From: Marchantia polymorpha subsp. ruderalis
Lineage: Eukaryota > Streptophyta > Marchantiopsida > Marchantiales > Marchantiaceae
NCBI GenBank assembly: GCA_037833965.1
Contig: AP031355.1
Location: forward strand, 10,131,501 to 10,195,500
Reading direction: 5' to 3'
DNA length: 64,000 nt
Positions 22,962-59,366 of this stretch are shown in pieces. The notes beneath the pieces are model-generated. The model saw only the letters and a program-made list of their open reading frames with translations, had not been told where the DNA came from and made no database searches. How positions within the stretch are numbered: the first letter of the stretch is position 1; every line of letters begins with the position of its first letter. A program made the translations under genes and the position numbers.

Positions 22962-22994
22962 GATAGCGTAGTGCTAGTTAGGATCTTTTGAGAG

Positions 22995-23024
22995 TATAAA
23001 GTAGATCAAGGCGTTTTGCCTTGG
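22995..23024 (+). promoter_or_regulatory. LTR1b TATA box and hairpin
   Basis: TATAAAGTA followed by CAAGGC-GTTTT-GCCTTG; compare CCAGGC-GTTTT-GCCTGG in LTR1. The second base pair of the stem is changed on both sides. Confidence 0.72.
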
Positions 23025-28200: not shown

Positions 28201-28390
28201 TCTGTCGAAGGCACAGGATACCATGTCCGCCCTCGAAGTGGAGGTGTCCGCGGCGTTGCAGCGTTTGGGACTGCGCAGTCGAGCGGAAGATTGGCAGGGT
28301 AGGGAGTTAGTGCGCGGCAGTCGGCCGCGCAGGAGACGTAGTACAGGTTCCGCGGAGTGTAGTGTAGCGTGGTTCCGTGCAGGCGTGTAG
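25250..28390 (+). pseudogene. U3 ORF in the 5' LTR of element B
   Basis: Same start context, domain order and end as the 1,041-aa frame at 3535-6660 and highly similar in sequence: conserved N-domain, PVHR repeats encoded by GCCTGTGCACAGGC hairpins, acidic block, coiled coil, basic tail. This copy carries about one break. Confidence 0.8.
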
Positions 28391-28426
28391 CGTAGTGCAT
28401 TGTAGTGCTAGGTAGGACTTAGAAGG

Positions 28427-28455
28427 TATAAAATAGTTCCAGGCGTTTTGCCTGG
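28427..28455 (+). promoter_or_regulatory. LTR promoter (TATA plus hairpin) driving element B
   Basis: TATAAAATA followed by CCAGGC-GTTTT-GCCTGG. As part of a 5' LTR this would start the genomic RNA about 1 kb upstream of gag. Confidence 0.75.
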
Positions 28456-34113: not shown

Positions 34114-35359
34114 TGTGGTACCCCACTTTTGGCAATTTTGAGGAAATTAAAACATTTTTGGAAAACTGTACCCTGCCAGCATTGTAAATAGCCTTCGGTA
34201 CATCAAAACAGAGTGAATCCGGAAGATCGCGGGGATTCTCGAGGGATCTTGTAGAATCTGGGATTTGGGGTGCCGCAGCAAGCACAGGCACCACCCTCCC
34301 TGCGAGCTCCGCAGTTAGGATCTCTACGGCGCAAGGCGCAAAACCCGCCTTCGGAGGTTGCGTCTGCGGCTGAAGGGAAACCCCCGTAATTAGGTCAACC
34401 CTTGGGCGCCTTGACCAAGTTAGGGTCCCGTTGGAAAGAGCTCGACGCGCTGATTCTAACGAGCCCAAGAACGCCTGGAACGGACGAGGACTTAGGGAGT
34501 TATCGCTACTGGAAGAAACGGAGGCGGTCGCCTACGGCGGAAGGAGTTCGCCACCGGCGCGAATTCCGCCTACGCGGAAGGGGGATTCAAGTTTTGTCCT
34601 ATGCACGGACGAAGGCGTTCGCCTGTGCACAGGCGAAGTAGGGTTAGGGAAGGCGCGAAGTCCGCCTACGCCCAGGCGTACGCCTGTGCACAGGCACTTC
34701 GGCGTCGGCGGAAAATCCGCCTTGGGCCCTAGAAATGCGCCTTGTGAGGTAGAAAGTGTACGGCGCCTTCCGCGCCAGCGCAGCGCCGCGTACGTCGGAA
34801 GAGCCGCCAGAGTAATCCAATAGGTACGGACCGTGCGGACGGCACGGGTGGATGCGCTCTTGGACGGACGGAGTTGCGGCGGCGGAAGCGCCGACGGAGA
34901 GACAAGGAACGGACAGACTGGACGGAGACGGCTGACCACGGTCAACGCCTTCCGCGCCAGCGCAGCGCCGCGGACGGAATTTGCCTGCGCACAGGCGAAT
35001 GCCTATGCACAGGAGGATGTTCAAGTTCCGCGCCGGCGGAGAATCCGCCGAGGCCCCTGCCTGCGCACAGGCAGGAGTTGAATTTTTGTCCGACATGCGG
35101 ACACACGCGTCAAGGCAGAAGGAGATTGGCCGAGGGGCGGTACGAACAAGTGTACCGCGCAAGGCGGAAAACTCGCCTTCGGCGCTACGCCCCCATGTCC
35201 ACAGGGTGACACGCTCGCGGAGTTCAAATCCGCCAATTCGAGCGTGAGAGTTTAATCGACGACGGCGGAGCGTGAAGCCGCGCGTGAGAGCGAAGACCGT
35301 TCCAGCGTACAGCCGGCGCGGCCATCAAGTGAGACGCTCTTCACGACCAAGAGCCGACC

Positions 35360-38300: not shown

Positions 38301-38513
38301 GTAGCGAAGAAGCTCGAGGCCTTTCTGTCGAAGGCACAGGATACCATGTCCGCCCTCGAGGGGGAGGTGTCCGCGGCGTTGCAGCGTTTGGGACTGCGCA
38401 GTCGAGCGGAAGAGTGGCAGGGTAGGGAATTAGTGCGCGGCAGTCGGCCGCGCAGGAGACGTAGTACAGGTTCCGCGGAGTGTAGTGTAGCGTGGTTCCG
38501 TGCAGGCGTGTAG
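35360..38513 (+). pseudogene. U3 ORF in the left LTR of element C
   Basis: Near-identical to the intact 1,050-codon frame in the right LTR (47642-50794) with the same domain order. This copy carries about one break. Confidence 0.8.
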
Positions 38514-38549
38514 CGTAGTGCAGTGTAGTGCTAGGTAGGACTTAGAAGG

Positions 38550-38579
38550 TATAAAATAGTTCCAGGCGTTTTGCCTGGG
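38550..38579 (+). promoter_or_regulatory. LTR TATA box and hairpin
   Basis: TATAAAATA followed by CCAGGC-GTTTT-GCCTGG. Confidence 0.72.
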
Positions 38580-39526
38580 GTTCTTTCCCATCAGAAGTGC
38601 AGATCAGGAACCCATTTCCTTTGCGTGTTTGTGTCCTTGAGTTCTGTCACCACGCACGAGGAGTTACAACTTAGCGTTCCGCATTTTGTAGCTGAAGGCC
38701 TTCGGCCGAATGTTCAGAGCTAGTACATTGGTTAGAGACTTGAGTAGTTCGGATCTGCACCTGCGGGTGACTGCCGATGCTCAGAGCCAGTGACTAGTTA
38801 GATACTTGAACAGTTTCGCCCCTACACCTTCGAGTGTTTCTTTCTGATTGTACTCCTTGGGATTTTTCCCCTGAATGCCAAAGTGAAGTTTTGCTACTTC
38901 GTGTAAGCCTTGGTTGTAAATTCAGGTTACGCTGCAGCAGGTGCCTTGAGGGTAACCCCTGTAGTATTTCTGGGAATGACAAGTGCTTGAGAATTCAAAC
39001 TCTTCAATAGACTGTTGTTGTGTTACTGGAATGTTTCACAGTGAGTCCTTCAGTGTGGACCTGTGTTCTCTGCGCGTTTTGTGAGTTGAGAGTGTTGTTC
39101 ACCGCGTCTGAGTGACTTCGATCCGAAGTAGGTAGTCCAAACCGGGTTTCCTACACTAGCAGCAAGCTAGTGGAAGCGTTGTAAAAGCCGGAGTTGGAAG
39201 TCACTGCCCGCAGCTTTGCCGAGTGTGCTCGTGAGAGACTTTCCCCCTGAAATCTTGAGTAGAGGTCCTAACGGATCTCAGGGTTGTGTTTCTGTAGTTT
39301 CAGGTGTGTGTGTGTGTGTGTGTGTGTGTTACGCTGCACTGTGCGACCTCCGAGTGCGCTCCGAGTGGACACTTGCAGTATTTCTGGGAGTGACAGTCGC
39401 CTGAGAATTCAAACTCATCAATAGTCTGTTAAACGTGACACTTTGTACCCTGTGTGTTCCTCTGTCCCTGTGGGTTCGACCTTTCTACCACTATATTGCA
39501 GTTTTAGCCTTTAGTGGGTTATTACA

Positions 39527-40166
39527 GCAGGTGTCTTTTGTGGAGTGCGTCATCGAGTGAACTCCAATTCACTGGGCGAGCATCCTTCACAGGGTGATGC
39601 GACAGCACGCGTTTGAGGAGAAGGGGGGAACTCTAAACCATCTCTCTCCTTTCCTCATCAATTTTTATCGACAGCGGAATTGATTGACAGCGGCGGAGCT
39701 TGAACATTTTCCGCCATTGTCCATCGACCATCCCGGGAAGTATGTGCGGGAGAATGAGGTCGACACTGATGCAGAGGAGTCACCGACTTCTACCCCATCA
39801 AGGCGGAGGGACGAAGGGAGACACACTCCTGCAGCACGAGTGCCGCGGAAGCGGCGATGGAGGGAAGAGTCTGAAGAGGAGCAGCATCAAGAACCCTCTG
39901 CTCCCATTCGACCGCGGCCGCCGTGCGAGCCATACAGCCGGCCGAAGCAGAAGGCACGCAGACTGGTGTTACCAGCCGACAGTGCGGACACGGCGACGAT
40001 TGCGACGGAGAAAGGAAGTGCGTCGCCAGAGAAGCATGAGGAAGCGCGGACGACCGCAGGAGCAACGGGCTCCGCTGCAACCTCGTCGGGAGAGAGGCCG
40101 CCTACGGGCCAAGGGCCTTCGGAGTTACCACGTGCGATGCGGACAGATGTTCCGTTTGCGCACAGA
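39527..40166 (+). repeat. Duplicate of the target flank between two LTR tails
   Basis: This 0.64-kb segment begins with the GCAGG duplication and repeats the U3 ORF sequence found after the 3' LTR at 51803-52440, sharing variants with that copy that other LTRs lack. It is joined at AGA (40164-40166) to the R/U5 part of an LTR. The segment is best read as the right flank of a former solo or 3' LTR, joined by microhomology to the 5' LTR tail of a second copy of the element. Confidence 0.8.
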
Positions 40167-40600
40167 GTGTTGTTCACCGCGTCTGAGTGACTTCGATCCG
40201 AAGTAGGTAGTCCAAACCGGGTTTCCTACACTAGCAGCAAGCTAGTGGAAGCGTTGTAAAAGCCGGAGTTGGAAGTCACTGCCCGCAGCTTTGCCGAGTG
40301 TGTTCGTGAGAGACTTTCCCCCTGAAATCTTGAAGTAGAGGTCCTAACGGATCTCTGGGTTGTGTTTCTGTAGTTTCAGGTGTGTGTGTGTGTGTGTGTG
40401 TGTTACGCTGCACTGTGCGACCTCCGAGTGCGCTCCGAGTGGACACTTGCAGTATTTCTGGGAGTGACAGTCGCCTGAGAATTCAAACTCATCAATAGTC
40501 TGTTAAACGTGACACTTTGTACCCTGTGTGTTCCTCTGTCCCTGTGGGTTTGACCTTTCTACCACTATATTGCAGTTTTAGCCTTTAGTGGGTTATTACA
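40164..40600 (+). mobile_element. LTR1 tail directly upstream of the PBS of element C
   Basis: Corresponds to about 39090-39526 (AGTGTTGTTCACCGCG... to GGGTTATTACA) with a shorter GT repeat (40380-40403). It is the functional-position 5' LTR end but lacks U3 and TATA of its own; the nearest promoter is at 38550. Confidence 0.85.
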
Positions 40601-40622
40601 TAAGAAGCCGACAACTTCTTTT

Positions 40623-40640
40623 TGGCGCCGCTGCCGGGGA
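40623..40640 (+). promoter_or_regulatory. Primer binding site, tRNA-Asp type
   Basis: TGGCGCCGCTGCCGGGGA, 22 bases after the LTR end at 40600. Confidence 0.9.
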
Positions 40641-40686
40641 CAGTTGCGTCAACACCGGGGTTTTTACGAGCAGCCATGCTCGGTGA

Positions 40687-43518
40687 ATGTCAACTGGGGC
40701 TGGCGGGAGCAACCTAAGTGCTAGAGCTGTCCGCAAGTTCCGACGAGATTCAGAGAAGGCCGTGGAAGAGACACGGCGTCAAAACAAGAAAACACCAAAA
40801 AGAGTACCTAAGCCTAGTTCGGCCGACATCCTTGGGGAACCTACCCCCGACGACTCGGAACCAAACTTGGTGCTTACAGTTCTACTAGATATTCCTTGCA
40901 CGGATCCGCCTAGTGAAGTAGAACCGACCGCCCGAGAACCGTCGACAGACACACCGATGGCGGACGGACAAGCCAATGTGCGGCTACCTCAGCCGATTAC
41001 TAAACATTCCTACCCGAAGTACAAAGGGAGTGGGGATGACGACGATGCAGATTCATACATCAAGTTATTCGAGTCGGTGTCTATTGCCAATCGCGAGATC
41101 GCAGACGACGACCGACTAAGGATCTTTCCAAGCCTTCTGCGGAAGAAAGCGAGGAGTTGGTACAATCATGAGAGCATCGATCCGACTGGGTTGACAACAT
41201 GGGCCCAGCTGAAGGAGAAATTCCTTCGCCGCTTTCGCGAGCTCGGCTACGACAGCCGGGTTTTGACGAAGTTACGTAATTTGCAGCGAGAGAAGAAGGA
41301 GAGTCTGCGTGACTACACCGAGAGATTTCTGGACCTCCTCGACAGAATACCGAAAACAGGACCAGGGTCCCCTTTCTCGGTACAACAAGCTGTGGATTGG
41401 TACGTGACCGGTTTAACTCGGGAGATGGAGACTTTTTGCCGACGCAGCAAGTGCGACACTATTGAGGATGTGATTGCATCGGCAGAAGCCTTCGAAACTT
41501 CCACTCTCAACCGAAGAGGTAGAGAGAGACGGGAGTCGAAAGAGCGAAAACCAAAGGGAGGGCGAAGACGACGTAGAGGTACAACTCCGTCATCGGAGGA
41601 ATCGTCTTCGGACGAGAACCGTTCTTCATCCGAAGAAGAGGAAACCTCATCGTCGGAGGAGGAGAAGAAGAGGAAGAAGCATGGGTCAGCGAAGAAAAAG
41701 GGCATCCGACGAGTGACTACGGACAGAGCGCCGGGAGATATAGCTTCGAAGATGGAGACCCTTGTGAAGGACTTCGCCGATCTCAAGGTTCAAGTGGTAG
41801 GCGGGCATGATCGCAGAAAATCACCCGGGAGAGTGCGAGCGAACTTATGGTGTACTACGTGCGGGGCGGTGGGACATGCAAACACCGAGTGCCTTACCAC
41901 CCGGCCGTCATATCCAGTCAACGCAGTAGAGTGGGCGCAACCGTACTATGGAGAGCACCCTTAGTACTATGGAGAGGCTAGCGAAGAGACAGCCTACGCC
42001 GTCCAGTCGGTTCCTACCCCTCCTGCAGTTTCAGCAATGCAAGTCCCACGATATATTCCGGTGGATCGGGCCACTACAGTACCCGTGAGGCGGAGAGCAC
42101 CTCCAGGAACGTTTGACCCACCGCCACCGCGAGCTTGTTATAATTGCGGGGAAGTTGGGCACTTCTCACCGCAGTGTCCCCATCCAAAAAGGCGAAACGA
42201 TTATGCTCCGACATGTAGTAATTGCAAGAAGGTCGGGCACACTGCGCCAGAGTGTGATCAGCCACCAGTCCCTCGGCCAGTGGTACGATTTGTGAACACT
42301 CCTGCCAAGGAGGACGTGCAAGTTAACCAGGTCGAAGTAGGTTCAGACGGGGATGGCGAAGACGAAGAATGGCCGGCTGAAGAGGTCATGTGCGCACGGG
42401 TCGAAACTCGTAGTTCCAAGAAATCGAAGGAACAAGAGCGTGACACTCGCAAGCACGAACGGAGACCCGACGACCGGACGGGAAAAGGAAAGGAGAAGAC
42501 ATCCAGCAAGTCCGACTCGCGACCTGCTCAGAAGTCTTCGGCTACGCGGGAGGCACCAGCAGTGCGCCCCCAGACAGCAGTCGAGGACGAGCCAGTGCGC
42601 CTACTGAAACGGGAGTATGCTCCGGATATCCGCAACGAGGTAGCCAACCTGTTGCAGGAAGCGATCCGCACTCAAAAGAACCCACCGCGGCCAGACTTGA
42701 CATCCTCCCTGGGAGCGAAGTTGGCAGCCACCGTGGAACCTCGCAGAGCGTCGCCGACCCCGGCGCCCCAACGCGCCCACTATGACTTGGTCGAAGATCT
42801 CGGGAGTCGAAAAGTGAACATCACGTTCAAGCAGCTCTTGGAGGACAATAAGACGTATCGGAGAATGTTGATGCTTTCGCTACGGCATCCGCGGAAGCCG
42901 CGCGCATCCACATCCTCTCAAGTATATCAAGTGGAGAGCGAAGACCAAGGGCCACCCGAGATCGATGTGGAAATAGCAGGGTGTTGTGTACGCAGAGTGC
43001 CAATCGACTCTGGATCAGGAGTCAACATAATGACGGAGGATACAGCGAGAGCCTTGGGGTTTAGTCAATACGAACCCTCGAAGCGTGTGTTGAGATTAGC
43101 GGATCAGACGCGGAGAATGCCTGCAGGTATGCTGCGCAATGTCAAGACAACCATCGGGGGTGCGGACTTTCGGTTGACGTATATCATCCTTCAACCGATG
43201 ATGAAGCAGGGCTATGACGTTCTGCCCGGGCGACCATGGCTATATGGTGCACAAGTCAGATGTGATTGGCGAAGACATCGCCTTAAGTTTCCTCATCCTT
43301 CGGAACCGACCAAAACCATTACGGTGCCCTGGAATAGGGTCAGGCACGAAGGAGAGACCCCATCGACAAGTGCAGGTTACACATCGGGCGAGGACAGTGA
43401 GTCGACCGCGCGATCAGATTCCAGTGGTACCGAATCCGATTACTTCGTGGGATTCGTTGCCTGCTGTTCGGTGGGAGAAGAAGAAGAGCAGGAAGCTATC
43501 CAGCCGGAAGACGAATAG
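40687..43518 (+). pseudogene. gag-PR: gag-protease of element C
   Basis: Same layout as the open frame at 29485: gag domain, acidic/basic region, three CCHC knuckles, linker, aspartic protease with DSGSGVNI. It carries about one break. The boundary to pol is UAG followed by CAA UUA, identical to that in element B and in frame with pol. The overlapping 13-codon uORF at 40676 is kept. Confidence 0.88.
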
Positions 43519-46359
43519 CAATTAACTGTGGGACTGGGAAGGAGTGAGACAAGTCACACCGAGGGCATTGTCGACCCTAGTGACTGTCACGAAGTACAAC
43601 TTAGTCCCGGCAAGTGCTTGAAGGTATCAAGCGCAGTGAGAGGAGACGAGCTAAGGAAAGTACAGGCATTCCTTAGCCATTATGTCGACGTCTTCGCCTG
43701 GAAGATCGAAGACATGAAGGGGATACCTGCACGGTATGGGGAACACCGTATCGATTTACTGGACGACTCAGTACCCATACGACAGCGCCAGTATCGCCTC
43801 AACCCAAAGTACTCCTTGCTAGTGAAAGAGGAGATAGATAAGTACTTGAGCGCTGGTATTATTTACCCTGTGCTCAGCAGCGAGTGGGTGTCGCCGATTG
43901 TTATCGTACCCAAGAAGTTGACGGGTAAGATACGAGTGTGTCAGGATTTCCGGAAGTTGAATGCAGCAACACGCAAGGATCATCACCCGTTACCATTCAC
44001 GGATGCCATTCTAGACCATGTCGCAGGACATGAATGTTATAGCTTCCTGGATGGGTTCTCAGGTTACAATCAGGTGTCTATCCGTGAACAGGACAAGGAT
44101 AAAACTACGTTCACAACCGACTGGGGAACTTACGCATACCACAAGATGCCCTTCGGTCTGTGCAACGCGCCTGCCACCTTTCAACGGATGATGACCAATA
44201 TCTTTCAGGAACAACTGAGGAAGTTCCTGGAAATATTCATAGATGACTTCTGTGTCTTTGGGAAGAGGTCTGAACACCTAAGTCACTTGAAGCAGACCTT
44301 CGATAAATGTAGAGAGAGCAGTTTATCACTGCATCCCGAGAAGTGCTTTTTCTTTATGACTAGTGGAATCTTGTTGGGTCATCGGGTCTCGGCAGAAGGC
44401 ATTGCGGTGGACATCGAGAAGGTCAAGGTTATACTCGAGCTTGAGCCACCCACGAATCTAAGAGAGCTGCGAGCATTCCTGGGTCATGTGGGCTACTACC
44501 GAAGATTCATACACATGTATGCAATACTAGCGGCGGACCTGACCAAGTTGTTGAAGAAGGACGAGCCCTATGCTTGGGGTGCGAACCAGCAGACAGCATT
44601 TGAAGCTCTGAAAGCGAAACTCACGACTGCTCCCGTACTAAGGAGTCCAGACTGGAATCGACCATTCCATGTTTACATTGACACTTCGGCATTCGCCATC
44701 GGTGTAGTACTGAGTCAAAAGGATGACAACAAAAAGGACTACCCGATCTACTTCGCGAGCCGACAGCTGTCTCTAGCGGAGCGGAAGTACACCACGACGG
44801 AGAGAGAAGCGTTGGGGATGGTGTACTCCTGTAAAAAGTTCCGTCACTACCTAATCTGCTACGAGTTTGTGTTCCATGTGGACCACTACGCATTGCAACA
44901 CCTAGTCAAGAAAGCCGACCTATCCGGTCGGATCGCCAGGTGGGTGTTATTACTACAAGAGTTCACCTACACAGTCCAGACCAGGAAAGGGGTGCACCAC
45001 GAAAATGCGGATTACTTGTCCCGATTATGGACCCAGCCGACAGAGGAGGAATTGGTGGACGATTTTCCAGATGAAGAGTTATTTCAGTTGTCTGCAGGAC
45101 ATGAGTCCCGCTATGCCGACCTGTATCGATATCTGCTAACCCTCCAGTGCCCCGAAGGCATGGATTTGGAACAGCGAACTGTCTTTATTCATAAGGCAGG
45201 CCCGTACCAACTCCAGCAGGGGGTTTTGTTCAAGAAGATGGCGGATGAGCGCTTATGCAGATGCCTTGAGGAATCAGAAGTACCAAGAATAGTGAGTGCG
45301 ATGCATACAGAGGAGGCGGGTGGACACTATGCCACCAGGAACACGGTCACAAAGATCCTAAATGCGGGGTATTGGTGGCCGACCATGTTTAAGGATGTTC
45401 ACGATTACATCCGCAAGTGCGACAGTTGCCAGAGGACGGGGAGACCGACGCCTACAACACGCTGGCCCCTGACTCCCATCATGCCTCTAGCACCTTTCGA
45501 AAAGTGGGGTATTGACTTTGTAGGGCCGATACAACCAGTGACTAGAAGTACACGAAGGCGCTACATTCTGGTAGCAACGGACTACGCCACCAAAATGGTA
45601 GAGGCCAGAGCCACCAGAAGGGATGATGCTGCCACAGTGGCAGCATTCTTGTTTGAGTCGATCATCACACGTTACGGATGTCCCTTAGAGCTAGTCAGCG
45701 ACCAGGGCACGCATTTTCTGAATCAGATCATCGAAGATCTGACACGGTATTTCCACATCAAGCACCGGAAGACTACTCCCTACAATCCCAAGGCAAATGG
45801 ACTGACGGAGAAGTCCAATGGTCTGCTGTGTAAAATACTACTCAAGGTCACGGTGAATCACGCTCACGACTGGGATACGAAGCTAGCAGCCGCTCTATGG
45901 GCGTACCGCACAGCTGAGAAGATCACGACCAAACAGACACCATACTTTCTGGTGTATGGGCAACACCCGATCCTCCCGATCGAATTTGAAGTACCCACCC
46001 AACGAACGTTGGATTTGCAGAGGATGGGCGCAGAGGAGAGTCAGCTCTACAGGTTACAGGAAGTCACGCTGCTGGATGAGAGGAGAAGAGACGCCGAAGA
46101 TCGCACCAGGAAAATCCAGCTCCGCCGAAAGGAGAGATACGATAAAAAGATCAAACCGGTACTCCTGCAGGCGGGTGATTTGGCATTGCTCTACGACAGC
46201 AGGCATGCCAGATTCCCAGGCAAACTGCACCTAAGGTGGATGGGACCTTACAGGGTTGTCGAAGTCTTCCCGAATGGATCCATCCAACTTGCGGACCTGG
46301 CCGGCGATTTGTTAGGCGACCGAGTGAACGGGTGGCGGTTGAAGAAATACCACATGTGA
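43519..46359 (+). CDS. pol: pol of element C: RT, RNase H, integrase (~943 codons)
   Basis: Open frame directly downstream of, and in frame with, the gag-PR terminator. It has no ATG start of its own near the beginning (the first plausible codon is GTG 43528), which fits expression by read-through. Residues counted from 43528: reverse transcriptase with YSFLDGFSGYNQ (~172), MPFGLCNAPATFQR and FIDD (~237); RNase H with YIDTSAF (~382) and TTEREAL; integrase HHCC finger (~590-635), D-D-E core (GIDFVG ~661, SDQGTHF ~723, GLTEKSNG ~757) and a GPY module (~904) ending VNGWRLKKYHM. No chromodomain follows. RT and IN motifs place it with the non-chromoviral Tat/Athila-like lineages. Confidence 0.93.
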   Translation, partial: QLTVGLGRSETSHTEGIVDPSDCHEVQLSPGKCLKVSSAVRGDELRKVQAFLSHYVDVFAWKIEDMKGIPARYGEHRIDLLDDSVPIRQRQYRLNPKYSLLVKEEIDKYLSAGIIYPVLSSEWVSPIVIVPKKLTGKIRVCQDFRKLNAATRKDHHPLPFTDAILDHVAGHECYSFLDGFSGYNQVSIREQDKDKTTFTTDWGTYAYHKMPFGLCNAPATFQRMMTNIFQEQLRKFLEIFIDDFCVFGKRSEHLSHLKQTFDKCRESSLSLHPEKCFFFMTSGILLGHRVSAEGIAVDIEKVKVILELEPPTNLRELRAFLGHVGYYRRFIHMYAILAADLTKLLKKDEPYAWGANQQTAFEALKAKLTTAPVLRSPDWNRPFHVYIDTSAFAIGVVLSQKDDNKKDYPIYFASRQLSLAERKYTTTEREALGMVYSCKKFRHYLICYEFVFHVDHYALQHLVKKADLSGRIARWVLLLQEFTYTVQTRKGVHHENADYLSRLWTQPTEEELVDDFPDEELFQLSAGHESRYADLYRYLLTLQCPEGMDLEQRTVFIHKAGPYQLQQGVLFKKMADERLCRCLEESEVPRIVSAMHTEEAGGHYATRNTVTKILNAGYWWPTMFKDVHDYIRKCDSCQRTGRPTPTTRWPLTPIMPLAPFEKWGIDFVGPIQPVTRSTRRRYILVATDYATKMVEARATRRDDAATVAAFLFESIITRYGCPLELVSDQGTHFLNQIIEDLTRYFHIKHRKTTPYNPKANGLTEKSNGLLCKILLKVTVNHAHDWDTKLAAALWAYRTAEKITTKQTPYFLVYGQHPILPIEFEVPTQRTLDLQRMGAEESQLYRLQEVTLLDERRRDAEDRTRKIQLRRKERYDKKIKPVLLQAGDLALLYDSRHARFPGKLHLRWMGPYRVVEVFPNGSIQLADLAGDLLGDRVNGWRLKKYHM

Positions 46360-46383
46360 GTGTTCGCGTGGGCGCTCACAATT

Positions 46384-46396
46384 GAGGAGGGGGGCA
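46384..46396 (+). promoter_or_regulatory. Polypurine tract
   Basis: GAGGAGGGGGGCA lies directly before the 3' LTR start TGTGGTACC (46397), 24 bases after the pol stop. It primes plus-strand synthesis in the family and independently fixes the LTR start. Confidence 0.88.
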
Positions 46397-47641
46397 TGTG
46401 GTACCCCACTTTTGGCAATTTTGAGGAAATTAAAACATTTTTGGAAAACTGTACCCTGGCAGCATTGTAAATAGCCTTCGGTACATCAAAACAGAGTGAA
46501 TCCGGAAGATCGCGGGGATTCTCGAGGGATCTTGTAGAATCTGGGATTTGGGGTGCCGCAGCAAGCACAGGCACCACCCTCCCTGCGAGCTCCGCAGTTA
46601 GGATCTCTACGGCGCAAGGCGCAAAACCCGCCTTCGGAGGTTGCGTCCGCGGCTGAAGGGAAACCCCCGTAATTAGGTCAACCCTTGGGCGCCTTGACCA
46701 AGTTAGGGTCCCGTTGGAAAGAGCTCGACGCGCTGATTCTAACGAGCCCAAGAACGCCTGGAACGGACGAGGACTTAGGGAGTTATCGCTACTGGAAGAA
46801 ACGGAGGCGGTCGCCTACGGCGGAAGGAGTTCGCCACCGGCGCGAATTCCGCCTACGTGGAAGGGGGATTCAAGTTTTGTCCTATGCACGGACGAAGGCG
46901 TTCGCCTGTGCACAGGCGAAGTAGGGTTAGGGAAGGCGCGAAGTCCGCCTACGCCCAGGCGTACGCCTGTGCACAGGCACTTCGGCGTCGGCGGAAAATC
47001 CGCCTTGGGCCCTAGAAATGCGCCTTGTGAGGTAGAAAGTGTACGGCGCCTTCCGCGCCAGCGCAGCGCCGCGTACGTCGGAAGAGCCGCCAGAGTAATC
47101 CAATAGGTACGGACCGTGCGGACGGCACGGGTGGATGCGCTCTTGGACGGACGGAGTTGCGGCGGCGGAAGCGCCGACGGAGAGACAAGGAACGGACAGA
47201 CTGGACGGAGACGGCTGACCACGGTCAACGCCTTCCGCGCCAGCGCAGCGCCGCGGACGGAATTCGCCTGCGCACAGGCGAATGCTTGTGCACAGGAGGA
47301 TGTTCAAGTTCCGCGCCGGCGGAGAATCCGCCGAGGCCCCTGATGCGCACAGGCAGGAGTTGAATTTTTGTCCGACATGCGGACACACGCGTCAAGGCAG
47401 AAGGAGATTGGCCGAGGGGCGGTACGAACAAGTGTACCGCGCAAGGCGGAAAACTCGCCTTCGGCGCTACGCCCCCATGTCCACAGGGTGACACGCTCGC
47501 GGAGTTCAAATCCGCCAATTCGAGCGTGAGAGTTTAATCGACGACGGCGGAGCGTGAAGCCGCGCGTGAGAGCGAAGACCGTTCCAGCGTACAGCCGGCG
47601 CGGCCATCAAGTGAGACGCTCTTCACGACCAAGAGCCGACC

Positions 47642-50600
47642 ATGACCTTCAACCGGGCGGCGGAGAACGTCCCATTCTTGAATTCTCGATTCCAATCTCT
47701 TGTGCGCGCTGCGCGCATCCATCTGCTGGCTGCGGACCATTCTCGACGTCGTCACACAGGAGATTTCTTGTTGATTGAGGGAGAAGTGAGTGCGCGTGAT
47801 TTGGAATTGAGAGCGATTAGAGTTTGCCGAGAGAGAAAGAAACGCGGACAGTGCGGAAGTAGAATGAGCGGGCAAGCGAACCCCAGGAACGCAATGACGA
47901 GACCGAGCAGATTGCGGATGGTGCCACTTCGCCTGCCGCAGAACGGGCTGCGCGCTTTCGAAGAGCGCTTAATAGCAAGAAAGCTCGATTTCTTGCTATG
48001 GGGATGGAATTACATCTGCGCGAATATGGTGCGCGAGTGGCTAGAGCCACAGGGACCACCCTCGCGCGGATTGCGTCCGCATGTTGACCGGTGGACAGTC
48101 CAAGATTGGGCGCAGGCGTTGGGAAGATGTGCTGGCATGCCAGGGCATCTCCTTTTCGACAGTGAGAGCATCAAGGTGACCAAGCAAGAAGAGGCGCAAT
48201 TTGTGGAGCTGTTCAAGACCGGGAGGTCTACCAAGAATGGGTACAGGACCCGTGATTACAAAGATCGATTTCGCCGGACTTTGTCCGCGGCGCTGATGCA
48301 ATTACTGCAGCCGCACCGCGCCTGCTACATCACATTGTGGCAGGTCTCTTTTGTGGAGTGCGTCATCGAGGGAACTCCCATTCACTGGGCGAGCATCCTG
48401 CACAGGGTGATGCGACAGCACGCGTTTGAGGAGAAGGGGGGAACTCTAAACCATCTTTCTCCTTTCCTCATCAATTTTTATCGACAGCGGAATTGTTTGA
48501 CAGCGGCGGAGCTTGAACATTTTCCGCCATTGTCCATCGACCATCCCGGGAAGTATGTGCGGGAGAACGAGGTCGACACTGATGCGGAGGAGTCACCGAC
48601 TTCTACCCCATCAAGACGGAGGGATGAAGGGAGACACACTCCTGCAGCGCGAGTGCCGCGGAAGCGGCGATGGAGGGAAGAGTCCGAAGAGGAGCAGCAT
48701 CAAGAACCCTCTGCTCCCATTCGACCGCGGCCGTTGTGCGAGCCATACAGCCGGCCGAAACAGAAGGCACGCAAACTGGTGTTACCAGCTGACAGTGCAG
48801 ACACGGCGACAATTGCGACGGAGATAGGAAGTGCGTCGCCAGAGAGGCGAGAGGAAGCGCGGACGACCGCAGGAGCAACGGGCCACGCTGCAACCTCGTC
48901 GGGAGAGAGGCCGCCTACGGGCCAGGGGCCTCCGGAGTTACCACGTGCGATGCGGACAGATGTTCCGTTTGCGCACCGGCGAACCTCCGCGGACGGACGA
49001 GCCTCCGCGGACCGGCGAACACAAGTGGACGTGGATCTACGCTTACGCGTGGGAAGGAGCAGTCCGCCTGTGCACAGGCGCTCGCCTGCGCACAGGTCAC
49101 CTGTGCACAGGTCGCCTGTGCACAGAACACCTCCGCACGTAACGCCTGTGCACAGGCAAGAATCACCCTCGTTCCAACGCAGGAAGGGGAAGGAGCCGGC
49201 GGAAGAACCGCCTACAAGACACCGGCCCTCGGGGCCAGACCCTCCGGCGCACCACGCGCCGCAATTTGCGCCTTCGGCGCCAGGGCCTTCGAGCCGAGGA
49301 GATACGAGTAGAGAGCGTGCGGAGGCCGCACCATCGGCGGGAAGTCCGCCGATAGATGCGCCTTCGGCGGTAGGGCCTATAGGCCAAGGAACATCGGGCG
49401 TGCGGCCCCCGGCCATGTCGCCTTCGGCGATAGATGTCCGCGGCGCTACGCCTGCGACGGACAAGGCGCCGGCAAATGCGCCTGCGCACGGGCCGAGCAC
49501 AGCCCCCACGGACCGATCGAGGGAGCAGCAGACGGAGGAGCGGAGTGATTGTCCGCGGGATGAAATCTCGATGCGCGATGCGCAATCCAACCCCGCGCAG
49601 CCACCCTCTGCTCAATCGCCTTCGGCGACGGACGACGGCGACAGAGAGAACGCGGTAGGCAATCAACCAGCGAGCGACGGGGATGCCGCTCGGATACATT
49701 CGCCTTCCGCCTTAGACATTTTGGCGACGAGCAGCGAGGCTGCAGCCGTGCCTTCGCAGGCAGCACACGTCGAGGACGTGCAGCCCCACTCGGGGCAGTC
49801 GCCGACGCAATCAATGGCGACTGAAATTCTCCACTCGGATGATGACGACGGAGGCTCCACGGAAGAAATGTCAGGAGCAGAAGACACCGAGGAGGAGGAG
49901 GAGGAAATTGTTGGAGCGCCGGCGGCGGTGCTCTCTGAGCAGGTGATTCCGTTGCTGCGGTACTTGGATCGCAAGGTCGATAAATACGCCGACCCACTCC
50001 AGCCGGGATCTTACATCGAGTTAGTGCGCAGGCGGACTCGCACTAAAGTCCACACCAGCAAGCTATTAGCTAGAGTGGACCAGGAGTTGAGGGACTTGAA
50101 GGAGAAGCATGAGTGCTTGTGGGGACAGTACAAGCTTAATCAGAAATTCTACAAGCACTCCGAGAAGATGAAGGATGAGAAACTGGGCGAGCTCACCAAG
50201 GAGCAGGTGAAGGTCAAGGAAGCACTCGATTCTAAGCAGGCCCAGAATCGGATTTTGTCAGAGGAGCTCGTGCGACAGACGCGGTTGTTGGAACAATGTC
50301 AGCTCGCACGGCAGGCGGATGAAGAATTAATCCGCAGTTTGCAGTCAGAGTGTGGCGAATTGAGAGCGCAACGTGCTGAAGCCGAATCGCAATTAGTGAC
50401 GATTGAAGAGGATCGCAGGAAGGAGGCGGATCGCACGAAGGTGGAGACGGCGAGGCGAGTCGCCCACTGTCTCAAGGGCTACGCCCACTGGGAAGTGAAG
50501 GCGCAGGAGAAACTCACACTGCGTGAGTTTGAATTGCGCGCAGCCGGGTTGTTGTCAGGCGACAGTAGGAGTCGGCGGAAGGTAGCGAAGAAGCTCGAGG

Positions 50601-50794
50601 CCTTTCTGTCGAAGGCACAGGATACCATGTCCGCCCTCGAGGGGGAGGTGTCCGCGGCGTTGCAGCGGTTGGGACTGCGCAGTCGAGCGGAAGAGTGGCA
50701 GGGTAGGGAGTTAGTGCGCGGCAGTCGGCCGCGCAGGAGACGTAGTACAGGTTCCGCGGAGTGTAGTGTAGCGTGGTTCCGTGCAGGCGTGTAG
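47642..50794 (+). CDS. U3-encoded ORF, 1,050 aa, intact, in the 3' LTR of element C
   Basis: Open from ATG 47642 (ACCATGACC) to the stop at 50792-50794, about 37 bases before the TATA box. Same order as the other copies: basic N-terminus; conserved helical domain (~88-300); Pro/Arg-rich middle with PVHR/PAHR repeats; acidic block (HSDDDDGGSTEE, DTEEEEEEIVG); PLLRYLDRKVDKYADPLQPG; coiled coil; basic tail. It starts ~1.28 kb after the pol stop, so on a full-length RNA it would be the last gene. How it is expressed (spliced RNA, internal promoter) is not visible. I see no recognised enzyme motif. Confidence 0.78.
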   Translation: MTFNRAAENVPFLNSRFQSLVRAARIHLLAADHSRRRHTGDFLLIEGEVSARDLELRAIRVCRERKKRGQCGSRMSGQANPRNAMTRPSRLRMVPLRLPQNGLRAFEERLIARKLDFLLWGWNYICANMVREWLEPQGPPSRGLRPHVDRWTVQDWAQALGRCAGMPGHLLFDSESIKVTKQEEAQFVELFKTGRSTKNGYRTRDYKDRFRRTLSAALMQLLQPHRACYITLWQVSFVECVIEGTPIHWASILHRVMRQHAFEEKGGTLNHLSPFLINFYRQRNCLTAAELEHFPPLSIDHPGKYVRENEVDTDAEESPTSTPSRRRDEGRHTPAARVPRKRRWREESEEEQHQEPSAPIRPRPLCEPYSRPKQKARKLVLPADSADTATIATEIGSASPERREEARTTAGATGHAATSSGERPPTGQGPPELPRAMRTDVPFAHRRTSADGRASADRRTQVDVDLRLRVGRSSPPVHRRSPAHRSPVHRSPVHRTPPHVTPVHRQESPSFQRRKGKEPAEEPPTRHRPSGPDPPAHHAPQFAPSAPGPSSRGDTSRERAEAAPSAGSPPIDAPSAVGPIGQGTSGVRPPAMSPSAIDVRGATPATDKAPANAPAHGPSTAPTDRSREQQTEERSDCPRDEISMRDAQSNPAQPPSAQSPSATDDGDRENAVGNQPASDGDAARIHSPSALDILATSSEAAAVPSQAAHVEDVQPHSGQSPTQSMATEILHSDDDDGGSTEEMSGAEDTEEEEEEIVGAPAAVLSEQVIPLLRYLDRKVDKYADPLQPGSYIELVRRRTRTKVHTSKLLARVDQELRDLKEKHECLWGQYKLNQKFYKHSEKMKDEKLGELTKEQVKVKEALDSKQAQNRILSEELVRQTRLLEQCQLARQADEELIRSLQSECGELRAQRAEAESQLVTIEEDRRKEADRTKVETARRVAHCLKGYAHWEVKAQEKLTLREFELRAAGLLSGDSRSRRKVAKKLEAFLSKAQDTMSALEGEVSAALQRLGLRSRAEEWQGRELVRGSRPRRRRSTGSAECSVAWFRAGV

Positions 50795-50830
50795 CGTAGT
50801 GCAGTGTAGTGCTAGGTAGGACTTAGAAGG

Positions 50831-50860
50831 TATAAAATAGTTCCAGGCGTTTTGCCTGGG
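50831..50860 (+). promoter_or_regulatory. LTR TATA box and hairpin
   Basis: TATAAAATA followed by CCAGGC-GTTTT-GCCTGG in the 3' LTR. Confidence 0.72.
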
Positions 50861-51807
50861 GTTCTTTCCCATCAGAAGTGCAGATCAGGAACCCATTTCC
50901 TTTGCGTGTTTGTGTCCTTGAGTTCTGTCACCACGCACGAGGAGTTACAACTTAGCGTTCCGCATTTTGTAGCTGAAGGCCTTCGGCCGAATGTTCAGAG
51001 CTAGTACATTGGTTAGAGACTTGAGTAGTTCGGATCTGCACCTGCGGGTGACTGCCGATGCTCAGAGCCAGTGACTAGTTAGATACTTGAACAGTTTCGC
51101 CCCTACACCTTCGAGTGTTTCTTTCTGATTGTACTCCTTGGGATTTTTCCCCTGAATGCCAAAGTGAAGTTTTGCTACTTCGTGTAAGCCTTGGTTGTAA
51201 ATTCAGGTTACGCTGCAGCAGGTGCCTTGAGGGTAACCCCTGTAGTATTTCTGGGAATGACAAGTGCCTGAGAATTCAAACTCTTCAATAGACTGTTGTT
51301 GTGTTACTGGAATGTTTCACAGTGAGTCCTTCAGTGTGGACCTGTGTTCTCTGCGCGTTTTGTGAGTTGAGAGTGTTGTTCACCGCGTCTGAGTGACTTC
51401 GATCCGAAGTAGGTAGTCCAAACCGGGTTTCCTACACTAGCAGCAAGCTAGTGGAAGCGTTGTAAAAGCCGGAGTTGGAAGTCACTGCCCGCAGCTTTGC
51501 CGAGTGTGCTCGTGAGAGACTTTCCCCCTGAAATCTTGAAGTAGAGGTCCTAACGGATCTCTGGGTTGTGTTTCTGTAGTTTCAGGTGTGTGTGTGTGTG
51601 TGTGTTACGCTGCACTGTGCGACCTCCGAGTGCGCTCCGAGTGGACACTTGCAGTATTTCTGGGAGTGACAGTCGCCTGAGAATTCAAACTCATCAATAG
51701 TCTGTTAAACGTGACACTTTGTACCCTGTGTGTTCCTCTGTCCCTGTGGGTTCGACCTTTCTACCACTATATTGCAGTTTTAGCCTTTAGTGGGTTATTA
51801 TAGCAGG

Positions 51808-54262
51808 TCTCTTTTGTGGAGTGCGTCATCGAGGGAACTCCAATTCACTGGGCGAGCATCCTTCACAGGGTGATGCGACAGCACGCGTTTGAGGAGAAGG
51901 GGGGAACTCTAAACCATCTCTCTCCTTTCCTCATCAATTTTTATCGACAGCGGAATTGATTGACAGCGGCGGAGCTTGAACATTTTCCGCCATTGTCCAT
52001 CGACCATCCCGGGAAGTATGTGCGGGAGAATGAGGTCGACACTGATGCAGAGGAGTCACCGACTTCTACCCCATCAAGGCGGAGGGACGAAGGGAGACAC
52101 ACTCCTGCAGCACGAGTGCCGCGGAAGTGGCGATGGAGGGAAGAGTCTGAAGAGGAGCAGCATCAAGAACCCTCTGCTCCCATTCGACCGCGGCCGCCGT
52201 GCGAGCCATACAGCCGGCCGAAGCAGAAGGCACGCAGACTGGTGTTACCAGCCGACAGTGCGGACACGGCGACGATTGCGACGGAGAAAGGAAGTGCGTC
52301 GCCAGAGAAGCATGAGGAAGCGCGGACGACCGCAGGAGCAACGGGCTCCGCTGCAACCTCGTCGGGAGAGAGGCCGCCTACGGGCCAAGGGCCTCCGGAG
52401 TTACCACGTGCGATGCGGACAGATGTTCCGTTTGCGCACAGACGAGCCTCCGCGGACGGACGAGCCTCCGCGGACCGGCGAACACAAGTGGACGTGGATC
52501 TACGCTTACGCGTGGGAAGGAGCAGTTCGCCTGTGCACAGGCGCTCACCTGTGCACAGGTCGCCTGTGCACAGGTCACCTCCACACGTGCCGCTTGTGCA
52601 CAGGCAAGAATCATCCCCGTTCCAACGTAGGAAGGGGAAGGAGCCGGCGGAAGAACCGCCTACGAGACACCGGCCCTCGGGGCCAGACCCTCCGGCGCAC
52701 CACGCGCCGCAATTTGCGCCTTCGGCGCCAGGGCCTTCGAGCCGAGGAGATACGAGCAGGGAGCGTGCGGAGGCCGCACCATCGGCGGGAAGTCCGCCGA
52801 TAGATGCGCCTTCGGCGGTAGGGCCTATAGGCCAAGGAACATCGGGCGAGCGGCCCCCGGCCATGTCGCCTTCGGCGATGGATGTCCGCGGCGCTACGTC
52901 GGCGGCGGACAAGGCGCCGGCAAATGCGCCTGCGCACGGGCCGGGCACAGCCCCCACGGACCGATCAAGGGAGCAGCAACAGACAATGGAGCGGAGTGAC
53001 TGTCCGCGGGATGAAATTTCGATGCGCGATGCGCAATCAAACCCCGCGCAGCCACCCTCTGCTCGATCGCCTTCGGCGGCGAGGATCGTCCGGCCCGCCG
53101 ATCGCCCGGCGGCGGCGGCGGGGTAGACAACCAACAAGCAAGCGACGGGGATGCCGCACGGGTACATTCGCCTTCCGCCTTAGACATTTTGGCGACGAGC
53201 AGCGAGGCTGCAGCCGTGCCTTCGCAGGCAGCACACGTCGATGACGTGCAGCCCCACTCGGGGCAGTCGCCGACACAATCAATGGCGACTGAAATTCTCC
53301 ACTCGGATGATGACGACGGGGGCTCCACGGAAGAAATGTCAGGAGCAGAAGACACCGAGGAGGAGGAGGAGGAAATTGTTGGAGCGCCGGCGGCGGCGCT
53401 CTCTGAGCAGGTGATTCCGTTGCTGAGGTACTTGGATCGCAAGGTCGATAAATACGCCGACCCACTCCAGCCGGGATCTTACATCGTGTTAGTGCGCAGG
53501 CGGACTCGCACTAAAGTCCACACCAGCAAGCTATTAGCTAGAGTGGACCAGGAGTTGAGGGAATTGAAGGAGAAGCATGAGTGCTTGTGGGGACAGTACA
53601 AGCTTAATCAGAAATTCTACAAGCACTCCGAGAAGATGAAGGATGAGAAACTGGGCGAGCTCACCAAGGAGCAGGTGAAGGTCAAGGAAGCACTCGATTC
53701 TGAGCAGGCCCAGAATCGGATTTTGTCAGAGGAGCTCGTGCGACAGACGCAGTTGTTGGAACAATGTCAGCTCGCACGGCAGGCGGATGAAGAGTTAATC
53801 CGCAGGTTACAGTCAGAGTGTGGCGAATTGAGAGCGCAACGTGCTGAAGCCGAATCGCAATTAGTGATAATTGAAGAGGATCGCAGGAAGGAGGCGGATC
53901 GCACGAAGGTGGAGACGGCGAGGCGTGTCGCCCACTGTCTAAAGGGCTACGCCCACTGGGAAGTGAAGGCGCAGGAGAAACTCACACTGCGTGAGTTTGA
54001 ATTGCGCGCAGCCGGGTTGTTGTCAGGCGACAGTAGGAGTCGGCGGAAGGTAGCAAAGAAGGTCGATGCCTTTCTGTCGAAGGCACAGGATACCATGTCC
54101 GCCCTCGAAGTGGAGGTGTCCGCCGCGTTGCAGCGTTTGGGACTGCGCAGTCGAGCGGAAGATTGGCAGGGTAGGGAGTTAGTGCGCGGCAGTCGGCCGC
54201 GCAGGAGACGTAGTACAGGTTCCGCGGAGTGTAGTGTAGCGTGGTTCCGTGCAGGCGTGTAG
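51808..54262 (+). pseudogene. U3 ORF of LTR T, remainder after the nested insertion
   Basis: Continues the frame family interrupted at 34113: end of the conserved domain, Pro/Arg-rich part with hairpin-coded PVHR repeats (about 52525-52605), acidic block, coiled coil, basic tail. Broken (about two breaks besides the insertion). Confidence 0.78.
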
Positions 54263-54298
54263 CGTAGTGTAGTGTAGTGCTAGGTAGGACTTAGAAGG

Positions 54299-54328
54299 TA
54301 TAAAATAGTTCCAGGCGTTTTGCCTGGG
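54299..54328 (+). promoter_or_regulatory. LTR TATA box and hairpin (LTR T)
   Basis: TATAAAATA followed by CCAGGC-GTTTT-GCCTGG. Confidence 0.72.
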
Positions 54329-55278
54329 GTTCTTTCCCAAACTCAGAAGTATAGATCAGGAACCCATTTCCTTTGCGTGTTTGTGTCCTCGAGTTCTGTC
54401 ACCACGCACGAGGAGTTACAACTTAGCGTTCCGCATTTTGTAGCTGAAGGCCTTCGGCCGAATGTTCAGAGCTAGTACATTGGTTAGAGACTTGAGTAGT
54501 TCGGATCTGCACCTGCGGGTGACTGCCGATGCTCAGAGCCAGTGACTAGTTAGATACTTGAACAGTTTCGCCCCTACACCTTCGAGTGTTTCTTTCTGAT
54601 TGTACTCCCTTGGGATTTTTCCCCTGAATGCCAAAGTGAAGTTTTGCTACTTCGTGTAAGCCTTGGTTGTAAATTCAGGTTACGCTGCAGTAGGTGCCTT
54701 GAGGGTAACCCCTGTAGTATTTCTGGGAATGACAAGCGCCTGAGAATTCAAACTCTTCAATAGACTGTTGTTGTGTTACTGGAATGTTTCTCAGTGAGTC
54801 CTTCAGTGCGGACCTGTGTTCTCTGCGCGTTTTGTGAGTTGAGAGTGTTGTTCACCGCGTAGGAGTGACTTCGATCCGAAGTAGGCAGTCCAAACCGGGT
54901 TTCCTACACTAGCAGCAAGCTAGTGGGAGTGTTGTAAAAGCCGGAGTTGGAAGTCACTGCCCGCAGCTTTGCCGAGTGTGCTCGCGAGAGACTTCCCCCC
55001 TGAAATCTTGAGTAGAGGTCCTAACGGATCTCTGGGTTGTGTTTCTGTAGTTTCAGGTGTGTGTGTGTGTGTGTGTGTGTTATGCTGCACTGTGCGACCT
55101 CCGAGTGCGCTCCGAGTGGACACTTGCAGTATTTCTGGGAGTGACAGTTGCCTGAGAATTCAAACTCCTCAATAGTATGTTAAAACGTGACACTTTGTAC
55201 CATGTGTGTTCCTCTGTCCCTGTGGGTTCGACCTTTCTACCACTATATTGCAGTTTTAGCCTTTAGTGGGTTATTACA

Positions 55279-57062: not shown

Positions 57063-58400
57063 GCGGCACCAACCAGTGTGCCAGCGACGGACAGGTGCTT
57101 GGCCTCAGAGCAAGTACCATTCGACGACTCGACTTTGGGTCAAGAGTCTTTGGCTCAAGCGCCTCCTGTGCAGGAGAAGTGTGGGGAGGAGCCTTCGGCT
57201 TAGAGGACTTCGGGTCAGACGCCTTCAGCGGAAGCGCCTTCGGCAAAGACCCAACTTGAGGAATCGGCCAAGGACAAAGGTCGAAAGGAGGAGACACGTG
57301 TGGATTCGGCACAGTCGCCTTCGGCACAAGCGTCTTCGGCGGTAGCAGATCAGTCAAGAGAAGCGGGCCCACTGGAAGCCAGATCTTCCACCGCGTTGGA
57401 GATCTTAGCAAGGAGTGGAGCGGCGGTCGCGGCAGAAGAAGCCACGCGACCTAGTTCTAGGGAATCGCCGAGGATTCCTGTGGCGACAGAGATCCTCGAC
57501 TCAGAGGACGAAGACTTAGGTTCGAAAGAGCAGGACGTGGAGTCGGTGCTAGGTACGCCGACAGGAGTGTTGTGCGAGCAGGTGGTGCCACTATTGCGGT
57601 ATCTCGATCGCAAGGCGGCGAAGTATGCCGATCCCCGCCATCGGAGATCCTACGCCGAATTGGTGCGGAACCGGACGCGAATCAAAGTCGCGACGAATCC
57701 TGTACCAATTTCCCTGGACCGCCAGTGCAGAGAGTTGGAGGAGAAGAACGATGCCCTACACGGACATCTTACTCTCTCGCGAAAACTGCATAAGGCAGTA
57801 GTACAGCTGCGCGATGACGCAGCAGCCAAGGCCCAAAGCGAATTTGAGAAGCAGCGTGAAACGATTGAGGCGGAGCTCCATTCGGAGCGAATTCAGAATA
57901 GCACCTTGGCAGAGTAGCTCGTGCGTCAGACGCGGTTGTTGTAGCAGTTTCAGATCGCACGCAAGACAGATGAAGAGTTACTACATCGCTTGCAATCGCA
58001 GCGCGACAAATTGAGAGCGCAGCGTGCGGATGCGGAGCTGCAAATAGTGGAAGTTGAAGGTGACAGCCGGCGCGAGACAGATGTTAGAGGAGTTAGTCAC
58101 GCGCGTGAACCAATGTCTGAGAGGTTACACTCTCTGGGAGGTGGCAGCGCGGGAGAGAATGACCTTGCGCGAGTTAGAGATTCGTGCGGCAGCCTTGATG
58201 TCGGGTGACAGTCGGAACCGGCGGCGAGTGGCGAAGCGGTAAGATTACTTCCTGGCGAGGTCGCGAGACGCCATTGCGAAGCTCGAGGCAGAGGTGACCG
58301 CGGTGTTGCGGCGGCTGGGATTGCGAAGTAAGGCCAAAGACTGGTCTAATAGGGAGACAGTGCGCGGTCGACATTCGCACAGGAGGCATAATAGATGATG
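57063..58400 (+). pseudogene. U3 ORF remnant of the old LTR1b copy
   Basis: Retains LEILARSGAA, VATEILDSEDED, CEQVVPLLRYLDRK, the coiled-coil segment and traces of the tail; alignable to both LTR1 and LTR1b proteins. Broken (several breaks). Confidence 0.75.
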
Positions 58401-58439
58401 TGTAGTAGGTGAAGTGTTAGGTAATTAGGACTTAGAAGG

Positions 58440-58468
58440 TATAAAGTAGTTCAAGGCGTTTTGCGTTG
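58440..58468 (+). promoter_or_regulatory. Decayed LTR TATA box
   Basis: TATAAAGTA followed by CAAGGC-GTTTT-GCGTTG, where the hairpin is partly lost, in keeping with the age of this copy. Confidence 0.6.
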
Positions 58469-59366
58469 GGGATTTTCCAGTTTTGGAAGTGCAGTTCAGG
58501 AACTCATTTTCTCTGCGCGTTTGTGTCCTTAGTTCTGTCACCGCGCAAGAGGAGCTACAGCTTGACGAAGTTACCGCATTTTGTAGCTGAAGGCCTTTGG
58601 CCGAATGCTCAGAGCTAGTGTATACTGGTTAGATACTTGAGCAGTTCGGACATACACCTTCGGGTGATTGTTCCTGTTTGTACTCCTTCGGGATTTTTCC
58701 CCCTGAATGCCAAAGTGAAGTTTTGTTACTTCGAGTAAACCTTAATTAACAATTCAGGTTGTACGCTGCCTGAGGCGCCTTTGGGGGTAGCCTCCGCAGT
58801 ATTTCTGGGAATGACTAATGCCTGAGAATTCAAACTCGTCAATAGACTGTTATGGTGTGACACTGGAGCTTTTCTCAGTTGAGTTTCTCAGTTCGGTTCA
58901 TATATTCTCTGCGCGTTTTGTGAGTTGAGTGTGTTGTTCACCGCGTGTGAGTGACTTTGGTTTGACGAAGGTACCGCATCCGAAGTAGGAAGTTCAACCC
59001 AGGTGCTCTGCTCTAGTTGTTAGAGTTAACAATCCGGAGTTGGGGAACACTACCTGCAGATCCTCTGAAGGTACTCTTGAGAAACTTTCTCCCTGAACCT
59101 TGAGTGGAGGTCCTAATCGACCTCTTAGTTGTGCTTTTCCAGTTTCAGGTGTGTGTTGGGGTAAACTACGCTGCAGTGTGCGTCCTCCGAGTGACCTCCA
59201 AGTTGAGCACTTGCAGTATTTCTGGGAGTGACAGTCGCCTAAGAATTCAAACTCTTCAATAGTCTGTTAAAACGTGACACTTTGTACTCTGTGTGTTGTC
59301 TCTGTCCCTGTGAGTTTGACCTTTTTGCTGCTATACTGCAGTTTTATCCTTTGGTGGGTTATTACA

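What the first reader, a model, noticed from the sequence alone, without database searches (positions are those of the whole stretch)
47642..50794. A long protein gene lies inside the U3 of the LTR
Three LTR copies keep an uninterrupted frame of 847-1,050 codons (3535-6660, 20418-22961, 47642-50794), and four further copies hold remnants. It sits upstream of the LTR TATA box, thus in U3, and in the 3' LTR it is downstream of pol on the genomic RNA. MMTV sag and lentiviral nef are known examples of genes in or overlapping U3; I know of no gene of this size in a plant LTR. Being in both LTRs, it is copied by every integration and survives as a complete gene in solo LTRs.
Basis: partly seen in the sequence, partly recalled or inferred. 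Interest (0 to 1): 0.88.

Follow-up and report, generated by a model that had tools for sequence, protein, structure and literature searches.

The report
Large conserved gene inside plant LTRs
A retrotransposon, probably from the liverwort Marchantia, carries a protein gene of about 3,000 bases inside its long terminal repeats, and the way its copies differ shows that selection has kept the protein working.

Summary
The window is a nest of Ty3/gypsy elements, probably from Marchantia polymorpha or a close relative, with LTRs of 4.9-5.4 kb. Nine copies of the LTR-borne frame are present and three are intact: two in solo LTRs with perfect 5-bp target duplications, one in the 3' LTR of element E, which has its own 5-bp duplication.

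The frame is not chance: 0 of 300 shuffles reach its length. It is under purifying selection: NG86 dN/dS against the 47642 copy is 0.15-0.43 in six comparisons, and in each 0 of 2000 context-matched placements were as conservative. The two LTRs of element E differ neutrally. Codons 1-84 look neutral, so the likely start is the conserved Met at 47894 (966 aa).

The stop lies 33-36 nt before TATAAA in seven of seven measured copies, which puts the frame in U3 if that box is the promoter.

The protein has a conserved N-terminal domain, basic clusters, a disordered middle and a long coiled coil; no transmembrane stretch and no credible Pfam match. Of 73 relatives, 66 are named, all M. polymorpha hypothetical proteins.

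Best reading: a nuclear accessory protein of the element. Transcription, promoter start and function could not be tested.

The parts
34114..51802 (+). Element E (Ty3/gypsy), 5-bp target duplication GCAGG, inserted in the 3' LTR of an older element D
46397..51802 (+). 3' LTR of element E (5.4 kb)
47642..50794 (+). Reported frame E3, 1050 aa from the first ATG
47894..50794 (+). Likely coding sequence from the conserved Met (966 aa): N-domain, basic clusters, disordered middle, coiled coil
50831..50836 (+). TATAAA, 36 nt after the stop codon; inferred LTR promoter
43528..46359 (+). pol of element E: reverse transcriptase, RNase H, integrase
34114..39526 (+). 5' LTR of element E; frame broken by a frameshift
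2307..7664 (+). Solo LTR A, duplication GACAT, intact frame 3535-6660
19063..23918 (+). Solo LTR F of a divergent subfamily, duplication ACTGG, intact frame 20418-22961
24003..29398 (+). LTR C (5' LTR of element D); frame with one internal stop
32500..34113 (+). Left piece of the 3' LTR of element D (cut by E)
51803..55278 (+). Right piece of the 3' LTR of element D; frame with one stop and a frameshift
7889..10339 (+). Remnant B: C-terminal half of the frame and the LTR end
10340..12506 (-). Remnant G: LTR start and N-terminal part of the frame, two stops
57117..59366 (+). Remnant H: C-terminal part of the frame, TATAAA at 58440 and LTR end

Best explanation
The U3 of this Ty3/gypsy family carries a real gene. 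It encodes a protein of about 850-970 residues: a conserved, mostly helical N-terminal domain, basic clusters that look like nuclear localisation signals, a disordered P/S/A/T-rich middle and a long C-terminal coiled coil. It is most likely an oligomerising nuclear accessory protein that helps the element replicate, integrate or escape silencing. Shown: the frame lies inside the LTRs, ends just before a conserved TATA box, is downstream of pol in the 3' LTR, has been kept by selection, and is intact in two solo LTRs. Inferred: the TATA box is the LTR promoter; the protein is made from the 3'-terminal part of the genomic RNA (a spliced or subgenomic message) or from a promoter in the first 1.2-1.5 kb of U3; it enters the nucleus; it acts for the element and not for the host.
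For: Frame far longer than in shuffles. Selection: dN/dS 0.15-0.43 against E3, N-domain 0.01-0.12 (A, C, D3L, G); context-matched control 0 of 2000 in six of six; gag of the same elements 0.17-0.19, so the gene evolves much like a structural gene. E3 and F still share 41% of residues over about 1,000 positions, in the same place before the TATA box. Two solo LTRs with intact frames. Basic clusters conserved among the fuller relatives. Long helix with pLDDT above 90 in its core. No hydrophobic 19-residue window above 1.14.
Against: No transcript or start site was available. Function rests on anatomy: both fold models are poor outside the coiled coil and no profile gives a function. Nuclear entry is inferred from short motifs. 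Pairs without E3 have higher dN/dS (0.37-0.47) and the middle of B is not clearly below 1 (0.69, interval 0.46-1.13). Context matching raises the ratios to 0.24-0.61. E, A and C show no TATA box ahead of the frame (0 of 3), so an own promoter is unsupported there; the splice-site scan was weak.
Confidence: 0.55

Rival explanations
1. The frame is chance or a by-product of GC-rich sequence, with no coding role.
For: Long frames can arise in GC-rich DNA; six of nine copies are broken.
Against: 0 of 300 shuffles reach its length; selection signal in the sense frame and not in the other two forward frames; context-matched control.
Confidence: 0.02
2. It is an ORF0-like leader gene: transcription starts upstream of the frame, so the frame lies in R and is the first cistron of the RNA.
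For: F has a TATAAAA at 19811, about 600 nt before its start. Retrosat2, also with LTRs over 3 kb, has an ORF0 upstream of gag-pol (PMC3485330, passages).
Against: No TATAWA ahead of the frame in three of three E-type copies checked. The TATAAA after the frame is kept in eight of eight copies that hold that end.
Confidence: 0.15
3. It is an env-like third gene that has come to lie inside the LTR.
For: Sense orientation and position after pol, as in plant env-like ORFs (PMC7264820).
Against: No transmembrane-like stretch: highest 19-residue hydropathy 1.14, 1.14 and 1.09 in E3, A and F. Basic clusters and coiled coil suggest a soluble nuclear protein.
Confidence: 0.05
4. It is a host gene captured by the element, or LTR copies now kept for a host function.
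For: Two solo LTRs hold intact frames. Many relatives are annotated as Marchantia genes; one, Mp_8g15400, is 96% identical to F over 59% of it.
Against: Among 73 relatives the 66 named ones are unnamed multi-copy hypothetical proteins of M. polymorpha; no relative with a host-gene name was listed (candidate lists capped). The intact solo frames may simply be young.
Confidence: 0.06

Closest known systems
MMTV sag and lentiviral nef (recalled, no call)
   Same: Accessory gene in or overlapping U3, expressed downstream of pol from the 3' end of the genome
   Different: Viruses of animals, small proteins of a few hundred residues or less; here a plant Ty3/gypsy element and about 966 residues. No sequence comparison was made.
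Sense additional ORFs of plant LTR retrotransposons (env-like; PMC7264820, parts 1 and 2 of 3 read)
   Same: Extra gene in sense, after pol
   Different: Those lie between pol and the 3' LTR; this lies inside the LTR, so it is present twice per element and in solo LTRs; no transmembrane stretch
Grande gene23 and Retand ORF4 (antisense ORFs, as described in PMC7264820)
   Same: Accessory gene of a plant element, gene23 reported as nuclear
   Different: Antisense, internal region, not in the LTR
Retrosat2 ORF0 (PMC3485330, passages)
   Same: Element with LTRs over 3 kb and an extra ORF without known function
   Different: ORF0 is upstream of gag-pol in the element, not described as in the LTR in the passages seen
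Plant mobile domain, Transposase_28 and Athila ORF-1 extra ORFs (PMC6317226, passages)
   Same: Extra ORFs of non-chromoviral Ty3/gypsy elements; the N-domain reminded me of such helical domains (recall only)
   Different: No Pfam match to them at E up to 10 in eight proteins, nor among the 25 of 27 families shown for 32 members

Membership tests
Ty3/gypsy LTR retrotransposon | RT and RNase H followed by integrase in pol | tested here: met
Ty3/gypsy LTR retrotransposon | LTR pair with PBS, polypurine tract and short target duplication | tested here: met
   (element E)
Chromovirus clade | Chromodomain at the end of pol | tested here: not met
   No chromodomain among Pfam matches at E up to 0.01 in 43528-46359
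Tat clade | Additional (archaeal-type) RNase H domain | tested here: not met
   Only RT-linked RNase H matches in Pfam at E up to 0.01; no phylogeny made
Athila clade | Place in the reverse transcriptase tree | not tested
   No reference set at hand; the PBS type is recalled as tRNA-Asp
U3-encoded gene (works like sag or nef) | Coding frame within the LTR upstream of the LTR promoter | tested here: inconclusive
   Inside the LTR: shown. Upstream of the promoter: TATA box only
U3-encoded gene (works like sag or nef) | Expressed protein | not testable with these tools
   No RNA or protein data; selection implies past expression
U3-encoded gene (works like sag or nef) | Purifying selection on the frame | tested here: met
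Plant env-like additional ORF | Located between pol and the 3' LTR | tested here: not met
   Starts over 1.2 kb inside the LTR
Plant env-like additional ORF | Transmembrane segment | tested here: not met
   Highest 19-residue hydropathy 1.14
Plant mobile domain, Transposase_28 or Athila ORF-1 family | Profile match | tested here: not met
   (25 of 27 families shown); a fold-level relation is not excluded, since the N-domain model is poor

The most novel reading that the evidence does not exclude
The U3 gene makes each solo LTR an independent gene copy that supplies a nuclear, self-associating factor in trans. The family then keeps a dispersed store of its own accessory or anti-silencing protein that outlives gag and pol, a retrovirus-like U3 gene strategy in a plant.
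Probability: 0.25. Interest if true: 0.88.

Novelty: new variant of a known kind. Interest (0 to 1): 0.72.

Why it matters
U3 is usually treated as regulatory DNA and solo LTRs as dead footprints. Here more than half of the LTR is a conserved gene that ends right before the presumed promoter, is doubled at each insertion, and can outlive the rest of the element in solo LTRs. It gives a concrete test case for whether LTR-encoded proteins act in trans, and it suggests that a set of Marchantia 'hypothetical proteins' (66 named relatives seen) are element genes.

Tried and rejected
Chance frame: rejected. Antisense frame 48700-49590 as the real gene: its dN/dS (0.54, 0.50, 0.38 for A, C, D3R) is close to that of the sense frame in the same stretch (0.47, 0.39, 0.35), so alone does not decide; I prefer the sense frame because A has an extra stop in the antisense frame and only the sense frame is conserved at both ends. 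High CpG mutation as the cause of high dS: tested by context matching; the signal weakens but stays. Pfam and PDB relatives by sequence: none credible; weak coiled-coil and extensin-like matches put down to composition. Fold searches with low-confidence models gave nothing (best E 2.0 in PDB; 0.076 in viral). A rough splice-site scan with recalled weights was inconclusive. Papers: nine answered searches (one search found no paper) showed, among the titles and abstract starts listed, no plant LTR with a gene inside it; lists were capped at 15-25 rows and only open-access text is held.

Full report
What was checked. The frame 47642-50794 encodes 1050 residues without a stop. Self-alignment of the window resolves a nest of one LTR family. 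Element E runs 34114-51802 with GCAGG on both sides and sits in the 3' LTR of an older element D, whose two pieces are 32500-34113 and 51803-55278. LTR A (2307-7664) is a solo LTR between copies of GACAT. LTR F (19063-23918) is a solo LTR of a divergent subfamily between copies of ACTGG. D shows no matching outer flanks: the bases left of 24003 and right of 55278 differ.

Anatomy. pol of E (RT, RNase H, integrase) ends 37 nt before the 3' LTR, with a purine-rich tract between. gag, the zinc knuckle and protease part, and pol of E are in three separate frames. A PBS-like site starts 23 nt past the LTR end in three of three internal regions; I recall its type as tRNA-Asp. Inside the LTR the order is about 1.2 kb of GC-rich sequence, the frame, 33-36 nt, TATAAA, and about 970 nt to the LTR end. 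The spacing was measured in the seven copies that keep the stop (E3, E5, A, C, B, D3R, F); H also has the box, making eight of eight copies that hold that end. This places the frame in U3 if that box is the promoter.

Copies. Nine copies: A, F and E3 intact; C with one stop; E5 with a frameshift; D3' cut by element E and with a stop and a frameshift in its right piece; B and H keeping C-terminal parts; G keeping an N-terminal part on the minus strand. Two short fragments lie at 12506-12820 and 39527-40163.

Selection. Against E3, NG86 dN/dS is 0.31 (A), 0.23 (C), 0.15 and 0.36 (the two pieces of D3'), 0.43 (B) and 0.19 (G). In residues 85-310 it is 0.06 (A), 0.01 (C), 0.03 (D3L) and 0.12 (G). 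In residues 1-84 the interval includes 1 in the four comparisons with enough changes (A, C, D3L, G). E5 versus E3 has 9 nonsynonymous and 2 synonymous changes, as expected after a recent insertion. Pairs without E3 are higher: A-C 0.37, A-D3R 0.43, C-D3R 0.47; the middle of B is 0.69 (interval 0.46-1.13). F versus E3 is saturated at synonymous sites over the whole frame; its N-domain gives 0.20. When each change is placed at random on a site of the same trinucleotide context, 0 of 2000 trials are as conservative in six of six whole-frame comparisons (A, C, D3L, D3R, B, G; approximate ratios 0.24-0.61), while leader 1-84 and E5 look neutral. For the D3R N-domain (5 changes, one a stop) 96 of 2000 were as low, and for the coiled coil of C and D3R 16 and 37 of 2000. 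gag of the same elements gives 0.17 and 0.19. In two of two other forward frames no such excess of synonymous change is seen.

Start codon. A Met is conserved at 47894 in E3, 3787 in A, 25502 in C and 20418 in F. Of 73 relatives, 21 align from the first 12 residues of F, and 13 of these begin at that Met. With the neutral leader this makes 47894 the likely start, 966 aa.

Protein. An eight-sequence model of F gives a long helix, residues 590-764, with pLDDT above 90 in its core and low confidence elsewhere (mean 46.7). A 32-sequence N-domain model stays poor (mean 50.2). Basic clusters of the kind PRKRRW and SRPKQKARK recur in the aligned fuller relatives; simple patterns match 35 and 23 of 74 proteins, many of them fragments. 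The highest 19-residue hydropathy is 1.14. Nuclear location is inferred from the basic clusters only.

Relatives. Three searches gave 73 distinct proteins at E up to 1 (weakest, P0074, 0.064); candidate lists were capped. Of these, 66 are named M. polymorpha subsp. ruderalis hypothetical proteins and 7 come from a source marked lgn. The closest to F is Mp_8g15400 (96% over 59% of F). The closest to E3 is P0039 (300 of 305 residues), from lgn; whether from DNA or RNA is unknown. In a tree of 35 N-domains the E-type copies group with G, P0039 and P0025 (100/100) and F with P0014 (100/99). E and F lineages both carry the frame before the TATA box, so that arrangement probably predates their split. 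The host is inferred from these names only.

Literature. A review places plant additional ORFs in the internal region, mostly between pol and the 3' LTR (PMC7264820, parts 1 and 2 of 3 read). Neumann et al. describe extra ORFs as heterogeneous, 21.4% with similarity to known domains (PMC6317226, passages). Retrosat2 ORF0 is upstream of gag-pol (PMC3485330, passages). A passage of PMC1560396 concerned a host gene lying within an element. Nine answered searches listed no plant LTR with an internal gene, judged from titles and abstract starts; subscription papers are not covered. sag and nef are cited from recall.

Verdict. A real, selected gene inside the LTR (very likely), in U3 (likely), encoding a nuclear accessory protein of the element (plausible, untested).

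Noticed in passing
39527-40600: E's 5' LTR is followed by a copy of the target duplication and about 637 nt of the D LTR that flanks E's other end, then a second LTR end; it looks like recombination or conversion between the two LTRs that copied 3' flank.
   Followed up: partly
50831-51802: The stretch from the TATA box to the LTR end is the least changed part of the LTR (about 2% against E3 in A and C, versus 5-7% before the frame).
   Followed up: partly
14235-18389 (minus strand): A second Ty3/gypsy family with a 1384-aa frame whose pol is 47% identical to that of E.
   Followed up: no
19811: LTR F alone of four checked LTRs has a TATAAAA about 600 nt before the start of its frame, a possible own promoter.
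   Followed up: no
12972-14057 and 55279-57057: Two further direct repeats of 310 nt (97.7%) and about 760 nt (91.5%), not part of the LTR family, next to LTR remnants.
   Followed up: no
48700-49590 (minus strand; also 26308-27570 and 52163-53167): Antisense frames of 296-420 aa overlap the disordered middle of the gene; probably by-products of its codon bias, not excluded.
   Followed up: partly
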